Below are positions 13,415-13,524 of a stretch of DNA of 64,000 nucleotides, piece after piece (position 1 is the stretch's first letter; every line of letters starts with the position of its first letter). Source of the DNA: a virus; the IMG/VR virus record IMGVR_UViG_3300024308_000023, positions 51,142 through 115,141 of that record; one strand, 5' to 3'. Under the pieces are notes generated by a model. The model saw only the letters and a list, made by a program, of their open reading frames with translations. It had not been told where the DNA came from and did no database searches. The translations under genes and the position numbers were made by a program.

Positions 13415-13524
13415 AGTATACTAGCAGCAAAACAATTATATTGGTTCAATTCCAATATTTTCCGCTCTAGGAAAATTAGCCTAATGGTAAGGCAACAGAC
13501 TTCAACTCTGTCGAAAGGTATACT
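13415..13524 (+). ncRNA. Y-RNA-like RNA 3: permuted tRNA-like domain with UCA anticodon
   Basis: AGTATAC (13415-13421) pairs with GTATACT (13518-13524), with GCAGCAA at 13424-13430 in the bulge. The tRNA parts have canonical sizes but permuted order: T arm ATTGG-TTCAATT-CCAAT, acceptor ATTTTCC, loop GCTCTA, acceptor GGAAAAT, TA, D arm GCC-TAATGGTAA-GGC, then anticodon arm ACAGA-CTTCAAC-TCTGT with TCA in the anticodon position. AAAGG near its 3' end also serves as the ribosome site of the next gene. Confidence 0.68.

What the first reader, a model, noticed from the sequence alone, without database searches (positions are those of the whole stretch)
13415..13524. Permuted tRNA-like RNA with canonical geometry and UCA anticodon
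Seen: every tRNA part has normal size (7-bp acceptor, 5-bp T stem with TTCAATT, GCC/GGC D stem, 5-bp anticodon stem) but in the order T arm, acceptor 3', 6-base loop, acceptor 5', D arm, anticodon arm. The anticodon position reads TCA, complementary to the UGA codon. As a pure mimic it would not need such an intact anticodon loop. It may be a Y RNA, or the precursor of a circularised or re-ligated tRNA that reads UGA.
Basis: partly seen in the sequence, partly recalled or inferred. Interest (0 to 1): 0.8.

Follow-up and report, generated by a model that had tools for sequence, protein, structure and literature searches.

The report
Phage Y RNA array mimicking tRNAs
The rearranged tRNA-like RNA is one of at least six small RNAs that this phage carries near a gene for a protein shaped like the human Ro60 autoantigen; the same RNA module is found in dozens of phages, and nothing suggests that this copy changes how the stop codon UGA is read.

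Summary
It is not a lone permuted tRNA gene. The same module (7-bp stem, 3 nt, CAGCA, insert, returning stem, G) occurs five more times in the window and in a set of 126 units from 47 loci of phages and bacterial contigs, near genes of the DUF2828/phrog_850 family. Against 8-22 matches at every other spacing, 100 occur at the 3-nt spacing. The window's protein, 14033-15502, is predicted to have the Ro60 ring-plus-vWA fold (Z 17). T arm-acceptor-D arm is also the order of Rfam YrlA, so the permutation is the known bacterial Y RNA design, but with a different Ro-stem (YrlA model 17.5 bits, cut-off 69). Apparently new: arrays; unpermuted forms, four of five with NCCA ends, in four loci; canonical-order tRNAs inside units; NCCA kept in about half of the permuted acceptor loops. 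UGA decoding lacks support: TGA is a normal stop here, the anticodon arm is unique among permuted units, and no CCA is encoded. Expression and binding are untested.

The parts
13415..13524 (+). The reported RNA: permuted tRNA-like Y RNA with a full anticodon arm (UCA). Closing stem 13415-13421/13518-13524; CAGCA 13425-13429; T arm 13440-13456; acceptor 13457-13463/13470-13476 with loop GCTCTA 13464-13469; D arm 13479-13493; anticodon arm 13495-13511, anticodon 13502-13504
13177..13282 (+). Permuted tRNA-like Y RNA, 106 nt: closing stem AGAATTG/CAATTCT, CAGCAAAC, T arm, acceptor GCTCCTC/GAGGAGC with loop TCCATATTAT (holds CCA), GGCC..GGCC hairpin, 4-bp CCGC-GCGA-GCGG hairpin
   Evidence: fold z -4.1
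13306..13400 (+). Y unit, 95 nt, whose insert is a canonical-order tRNA-Lys(UUU)-like sequence (ARAGORN 13324-13395; two acceptor mismatches, no CCA); closing stem AGGTTTC/GAAACCT
13896..13955 (+). Short Y unit, 60 nt, closing stem AGGCTGT/GCAGCCT (one G-U), no tRNA-like insert
13968..14031 (+). Short Y unit, 64 nt, in the leader of the Ro-like gene: its 3' strand lies between the Shine-Dalgarno (about 14017, inside the unit) and the ATG at 14033
20852..20989 (+). Permuted tRNA-like Y RNA, 138 nt, closing stem AGATTGC/GCAATCT, T arm, acceptor (one mismatch) with loop ACCACTTAT (holds CCA), D arm; 5 kb from the others. RNAfold alone does not single out its fold (z -0.5)
13731..13878 (+). Candidate further, longer unit: 5' strand GGGATAA-TTG-CAGCAAACC at 13731, matching a GGGATGA-NNN-CAGCA element of 13 related loci, most of them upstream of the Ro-like gene; the 3' partner and end are not established
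14033..15502 (+). Ro60-like protein (489 aa): DUF2828 + DUF7788 (Pfam), phrog_850 'RNA-binding protein'; predicted fold = helical ring + vWA domain as in Ro60
13528..13737 (+). Small ORF (69 aa, no family match) whose Shine-Dalgarno (about 13514) lies inside the 3' end of the 13415-13524 unit

Best explanation
13415-13524 encodes a phage Y RNA: a small RNA whose paired ends (7-bp stem, 3-nt spacer, CAGCA strand, A-rich return strand) form a binding site for the phage's own Ro60-like protein encoded at 14033-15502, and whose middle is a tRNA-shaped module. It is one of at least six such RNAs in the window. Proposed working: the Ro ring holds the stem, and the variable insert (permuted tRNA mimic, canonical tRNA, or short hairpin) tethers the ring to a partner that recognises tRNA-like RNA, as Y RNA does with PNPase in Deinococcus RYPER, or blocks (gates) the ring. 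Different inserts would give one Ro protein several partners. Shown here: the conserved module and its covarying stem, its association with the Ro-like gene, the predicted Ro60 fold, the tRNA-like order T arm-acceptor-D arm. Inferred: transcription as a separate RNA, binding by the Ro-like protein, and the tether/gate function. My confidence in 'Y RNA of the Ro-like protein' is about 0.85, in 'tether to a host or phage RNA-processing enzyme' about 0.4, in 'decoy for tRNA-cutting nucleases' about 0.2.
For: Module: 7-mer before NNN-CAGCA with a downstream complement, 100 hits at spacer 3 on the sense strand versus 8-22 at other spacers and 8-17 on the antisense strand. Stem not selected for: 75 of 121 [AG]GG-N4-N3-CAGCA candidates have the exact N4 complement before CCYG, versus mean 3.9, maximum 10 in shuffles, with 36 different N4 stems. 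126 units with a shared consensus from 47 loci; no such exact unit in 51 kb of the same genome outside the window (loci L076-L078). D-arm-like hairpin with GG in 21 of 21 permuted units versus 6 expected. Units next to this protein family in Straboviridae, Felixounavirus, Herelleviridae, mycobacteriophage, Campylobacter phage and bacterial contigs. Protein: DUF2828/DUF7788, phrog_850; AlphaFold model pLDDT 74 matches Ro60/TROVE structures first, Foldseek E 2.7e-10 to 6.6e-7, Z 17.2 over 390 residues. Rfam YrlA has the same T arm-acceptor-D arm order. In Listeria phage CKA15 three strongly transcribed non-coding regions lie within 2 kb upstream of the homologous gene, and its authors suggest Y RNAs (PMC12282133); three units lie just upstream of that gene in the relatives A511 and cka11.
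Against: No expression, binding or structure data for this phage. The Ro-like protein is not in Pfam TROVE PF05731, and the RNA does not match Rfam YrlA above threshold (17.5 bits against 69). The CAGCA strand differs from the YrlA consensus strand, so binding by homology cannot be assumed. The CKA15 paper gives coordinates for only one abundant RNA, 26,236-26,727, which is not one of my units, so the match to its other two regions is unproved.
Confidence: 0.72

Rival explanations
1. Permuted tRNA gene: the transcript is cut in the acceptor loop and joined at the variable region to give a working tRNA that reads UGA.
For: When the parts are put in canonical order ARAGORN calls a tRNA with anticodon TCA. 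Some related contigs carry free tRNAs with stop anticodons (CTA in many, TCA in L033), so stop-codon reading tRNAs exist in such phages.
Against: TGA is an ordinary stop in 13 of 46 long ORFs and the 12 read-through extensions examined are 2-33 codons. The unit shares its closing stem and CAGCA with units that have no anticodon at all. Loop GCTCTA has no CCA. No RNA ligase found in the contig (the weak PF09414 hit is an NAD-dependent DNA ligase). A 7-bp acceptor is not the tRNA-Sec shape; ARAGORN's label rests on the anticodon.
Confidence: 0.04
2. Decoy: the tRNA-like modules, some with intact anticodon arms, soak up host anticodon nucleases or other tRNA-directed defences, with Ro stabilising the RNA.
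For: Four units in this data set keep 7-nt anticodon loops (window UCA, Lys UUU; L010 Glu UUC; L021 Leu UAG). Hughes et al. 2020 raise competitive inhibition of an anticodon nuclease as a possible role of YrlA (PMC7790460). The phage carries about 30 tRNAs.
Against: Most units have no anticodon arm and 73 of 164 are short hairpins without tRNA features. No nuclease target is identified.
Confidence: 0.2
3. Translational control: Ro binding to units that overlap ribosome-binding sites shuts down the Ro-like gene (13968-14031) and the 69-aa ORF (13415-13524).
For: In both cases the Shine-Dalgarno lies inside the unit and the start codon 2-4 nt after it.
Against: Only 3 of 126 units are placed so; in most relatives the Shine-Dalgarno follows the leader unit. 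It can be a by-product of tight packing. It does not explain the tRNA-like inserts.
Confidence: 0.15
4. Degenerating tRNA genes caught in a tRNA-rich region, with chance closing stems.
For: The region is dense in tRNAs, and one insert is a tRNA-Lys with acceptor mismatches.
Against: The fixed 3-nt spacing, the covarying stem and the strand bias across dozens of loci exclude it.
Confidence: 0.02

Closest known systems
YrlA, bacterial Y RNA (Rfam RF02553; Salmonella YrlA)
   Same: 5' and 3' ends paired in a stem; tRNA-like module in the order T arm, acceptor hairpin, D arm; encoded near a Ro60-like protein gene
   Different: Different conserved strand next to the closing stem (CAGCA, not in the RF02553 consensus); acceptor 7 bp with a 4-13 nt loop often holding NCCA, where the RF02553 consensus has about 6 bp and a 3-nt loop; arrays of up to 11 units; unpermuted and canonical-order versions exist; this copy has an anticodon arm
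Ro60 / Rsr (TROVE) proteins, including Ro60 of Thermus phage phiLo (PDB 9l5y)
   Same: Predicted helical ring plus vWA domain with the metal-site motif DNSGSM; best structural matches
   Different: Belongs to DUF2828/DUF7788 at sequence level, not PF05731; 12-16% identity in the structural alignments
Phage-encoded Y RNAs (mycobacteriophages, attributed to Chen et al. 2014; suggested in Listeria phage CKA15)
   Same: Y RNAs near a Ro-like gene in phages have been reported or proposed (PMC12282133, PMC7765460)
   Different: I could not read Chen et al. 2014 (not held), so whether the CAGCA module and these phage families were already described there is unknown
Two-piece permuted tmRNA and permuted tRNA genes of red algae
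   Same: 3' half of a tRNA-like fold precedes the 5' half; some loops keep CCA
   Different: No tag reading frame, loop only 6-10 nt in the three permuted window units, paired ends carry a conserved CAGCA strand; no sign of joining

Membership tests
YrlA (RF02553) | Covariance model score at or above the gathering cut-off (69 bits) | tested here: not met
   Best in the own contig 17.5 bits; nothing at gathering level in the window or seven annotated phage regions
YrlA (RF02553) | Order T arm - acceptor hairpin - D arm inside paired ends | tested here: met
   Rfam alignment shows this order for the model; descriptor and table show it in the window units
YrlA (RF02553) | Same conserved strand next to the closing stem as the model consensus (cggCgaAUGC) | tested here: not met
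   Window and relatives have N7-NNN-CAGCA; the model consensus does not
Y RNA in the broad sense | Encoded near a Ro60-type protein | tested here: met
   Units within 0.1-7 kb of the DUF2828 gene, which has a predicted Ro60 fold
Y RNA in the broad sense | Physically bound by the Ro protein through the closing stem | not testable with these tools
   Needs binding or structure experiments
Ro60/TROVE protein | Match to Pfam TROVE PF05731 | tested here: not met
   No match in the protein or contig (control rang)
Ro60/TROVE protein | Helical ring plus vWA domain of Ro60 | tested here: met
   Predicted model; the eight best Foldseek hits are all Ro60/TROVE, Z 11.5-17.2 over 381-406 residues
Functional UGA-reading tRNA | UGA used as a sense codon in the genome | tested here: not met
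   13 of 46 long ORFs end in TGA with short extensions in the 12 examined
Functional UGA-reading tRNA | Free CCA end and joined halves | not testable with these tools
   CCA not encoded in this unit's loop; processing needs RNA data
tmRNA | Rfam tmRNA model match at gathering level | tested here: not met
   Only cyano_tmRNA 14.6 bits against 70, for the 13202-13243 stretch

The most novel reading that the evidence does not exclude
The permuted units are cut in the acceptor loop by the tRNA-maturation enzymes (RNase P at the acceptor 5' strand, 3' trimming to NCCA), giving two-piece tRNA-like RNAs held together by the Ro-bound stem, the same end product as the unpermuted units of Cronobacter phage S13, Aeromonas phage avDM12 and L019 (Synechococcus phage B23 has the same topology without an encoded CCA). 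Ro would then sit where the anticodon should be, on an RNA that tRNA-recognising enzymes or EF-Tu could still handle.
Probability: 0.15. Interest if true: 0.85.

Novelty: new variant of a known kind. Interest (0 to 1): 0.62.

Why it matters
It ties a family of 'unknown function' phage proteins (DUF2828/phrog_850, in 681 of 50,697 phage records) to a specific, searchable RNA module, so that Ro RNPs can be recognised in phages of very different hosts. The unpermuted units with free NCCA ends, and the NCCA left in half of the permuted loops, point to how the puzzling permuted Y RNA arose: tandem tRNA-like genes whose inner halves were kept, as the spacing between the two adjacent S13 genes shows. 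The arrays let one ask directly whether one Ro protein is given different jobs by different RNAs.

Tried and rejected
(1) UGA suppression: rejected on stop-codon use, read-through lengths and the lack of an anticodon arm in other permuted units. (2) tRNA-Sec: ARAGORN's label for the re-ordered sequence rests on TCA only. (3) tmRNA: model far below cut-off. (4) First guess that ACAGCAAMC alone is over-represented: not significant in the whole window (31 matches, 23 expected); only the stem-plus-spacing form is. (5) Origin of the 13415 insert from a known tRNA: best full-length matches are mixed (Gln, Leu, Arg, Cys), and weak BLAST hits fall in tRNA-Gly genes (E about 1); unresolved. An earlier comparison used truncated tRNA sequences and was discarded for this purpose. 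(6) Search of viral contigs for tRNAs sharing the D and anticodon arms: none. (7) L047 10908-11026 in the table is an artefact of two adjacent unpermuted units and is not counted as permuted. (8) Table entries with odd motifs (L084 4838) are doubtful. (9) No solved-structure sequence hit for the protein; the fold comparison was needed. (11) The key papers on bacterial Y RNAs (PMC4201824, PMC6281776, PMC10870794, PMC6047535) are not held.

Full report
CHECK. The finding is present as described. A descriptor asking for a 5-bp T arm with TTCRANN loop, then a 7-nt acceptor strand, a 3-44 nt loop and its complement, finds two sites in the 64-kb window, 13202 and 13440, both on the + strand, and 0.1 per shuffled copy of the whole 573-kb set. 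With one mismatch allowed a third, 20906, appears. The reported unit folds better than all 200 shuffles.

SURROUNDINGS. The window is part of a 115-kb IMG/VR phage contig with about 30 tRNA genes. Half a kilobase downstream is a 489-aa protein with DUF2828 and DUF7788, phrog_850, not PF05731. Its AlphaFold model (pLDDT 74) gives Ro60/TROVE structures as the eight best Foldseek hits and Z 17.2 over 390 residues. Relatives were found in 46 viral contigs, 681 annotated phage records and 12 loci of bacterial assemblies.

THE MODULE. Between 13177 and 14031 the sequence CAGCA recurs, each time 3 nt after a 7-mer whose complement lies 46-96 nt on. Counting over 41 loci, 7-mers placed 3 nt before CAGCA have an exact downstream complement 100 times on the sense strand; all other spacings give 8-22, the antisense strand 8-17. 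In a test that did not select for the inner four pairs, 75 of 121 candidates paired exactly, against a mean of 3.9 and a maximum of 10 after shuffling, with 36 different sequences. The stricter set has 126 units of 43-202 nt from 47 loci and a common form: AGG-N4, NNN (middle T 82%), CAGCAA, insert, an A-rich strand, the returning stem, then G, mostly GTT (the final G was a selection criterion there). A smaller number have CCGCA. Units lie next to this gene family in Cronobacter S13, Sinorhizobium phiM12, Vibrio KVP40, a felixounavirus, Listeria A511, mycobacteriophage Rumpelstiltskin, Campylobacter CP30A, Klebsiella, Bacillus, Enterococcus, Staphylococcus and Synechococcus phages, and in bacterial contigs. 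Not every relative shows them: jumbo phages XbC2 and SNUABM_50 and Ochrobactrum phage OC gave no clear unit near the gene. The rest of the window's own contig, 51 kb, has none of the exact form.

INSERTS AND TOPOLOGY. Four kinds were seen. (a) Permuted tRNA-like: T arm, acceptor hairpin, D arm, as here; about 24 distinct units (one entry discounted). D-arm-like hairpins with GG in the loop are present in 21 of 21, 6 expected. Eleven of 24 acceptor loops begin NCCA, where 1 in 64 is the chance rate (one search gives p about 1e-15 for 12 of 25; related units are not independent, so this is an upper bound on significance). (b) Canonical-order tRNA inside the stem: window 13306-13400, L010, L021. 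(c) Short hairpins of up to 72 nt, the commonest kind, 73 of 164. (d) Unpermuted: the acceptor ends are free and the CAGCA stem, capped by a 3-5 nt loop, stands where the anticodon arm should be. S13 has two side by side (annotated as tRNA-Ser of 121 nt and tRNA-OTHER), L019 one, Aeromonas avDM12 one, and Synechococcus B23 one, annotated as undetermined tRNA. All but B23 end in NCCA. The spacer between the two S13 genes, ACCAAAATCT, resembles the loops of the permuted units in length and in starting with NCCA, which suggests (inference) that a permuted gene arises from a tandem pair by keeping the inner halves.

HOW IT MOST LIKELY WORKS. Best explanation: Y RNA partner of the phage Ro-like protein. 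Shown: module, covariation, gene association, predicted Ro60 fold, tRNA-like order. Established for the family elsewhere: vertebrate Y RNAs bind Ro60 through a 7-bp lower helix with bulges (PMC4726728); bacterial Y RNA tethers Rsr to PNPase and gates it (PMC4726728; PMC8394870). Inferred: that the CAGCA module is the Ro site and that inserts recruit or mimic. Supporting from literature: in Listeria phage CKA15 three non-coding regions upstream of the homologous gene are strongly transcribed and the authors suggest Y RNAs; the protein itself is found in purified particles with 20 peptides (PMC12282133). Its most abundant RNA, 26,236-26,727, is not one of my units; two of the three regions have no printed coordinates. 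The Ro-like protein of mycobacteriophage LeBron is toxic when overproduced (PMC13148394).

THE UCA ANTICODON. Put in canonical order, the sequence is called a tRNA with anticodon TCA. But TGA ends 13 of 46 long ORFs, and the 12 read-through extensions examined are 2-33 codons. Among permuted units only this one has a 5-bp stem and 7-nt loop in that place. Its loop has no CCA. The parsimonious reading is an insert that kept its anticodon arm, as the canonical-order inserts do. Its parent tRNA could not be identified.

MEMBERSHIP. It works like a Y RNA on the evidence above. It is not filed as a member of Rfam YrlA: the model is far below threshold and the conserved strand differs, although the order T arm-acceptor-D arm is the same.

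NOVELTY. New variant of a known kind. Y RNAs in phages, and tRNA mimicry by permuted Y RNAs, are known. I did not find the CAGCA module, the unpermuted topology, the arrays or the NCCA pattern in the papers I could read, but the main source (Chen et al. 2014) was not readable, so priority is uncertain.

Noticed in passing
L001, L002, L005, L006, L010, L012, L015, L016, L018, L021, L027, L029, L031, L081: Free tRNAs with CTA (amber) anticodon lie near the Ro-like gene in many related contigs; L033 3319-3395 has TCA, L048 and L078 have TTA. Whether these phages recode TAG was not examined.
   Followed up: no
L049 (Vibrio phage KVP40) 1160-1243: Annotated pseudo-tRNA matches the Rfam selenocysteine tRNA model above its cut-off (49.2 bits against 47).
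   Followed up: no
L047 10857-10977 and 10987-11099; L086 10830-10939: Records annotate these as tRNA-Ser, tRNA-OTHER and undetermined tRNA; they are unpermuted Y-like units.
   Followed up: yes
L088 2489-2980 (Listeria phage cka11): About 490-nt structured-looking stretch corresponding to the most abundant RNA of phage CKA15 (26,236-26,727); it has no CAGCA unit and is a separate unknown RNA.
   Followed up: partly
window 7504, 9236, 9543, 10156, 12052, 15636, 17470, 18731, 20992, 23300: Repeated promoter-like element TTGAC-N17-18-TATAAT, several copies followed by a shared ATCAAGAGCGGAGA-like leader.
   Followed up: no
window 26858-27787 and 28466-29218: NAD-dependent DNA ligase split over two genes: adenylation and OB domains in one, zinc-finger-like and BRCT domains in the other.
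   Followed up: partly
13 related loci, e.g. L014 5305, L015 601, L021 5599, L029 5509; window 13731: A conserved GGGATRA-NNN-CAGCA element, mostly upstream of the Ro-like gene, that seems to begin a longer unit (complements 202-279 nt on in six of 13 loci); the other ends were not found.
   Followed up: partly
PMC12282133, Listeria phage CKA15 protein CKA15_055: The Ro-like protein is found in purified phage particles (20 peptides, 57% coverage), which raises the question whether it is injected, with or without RNA.
   Followed up: no
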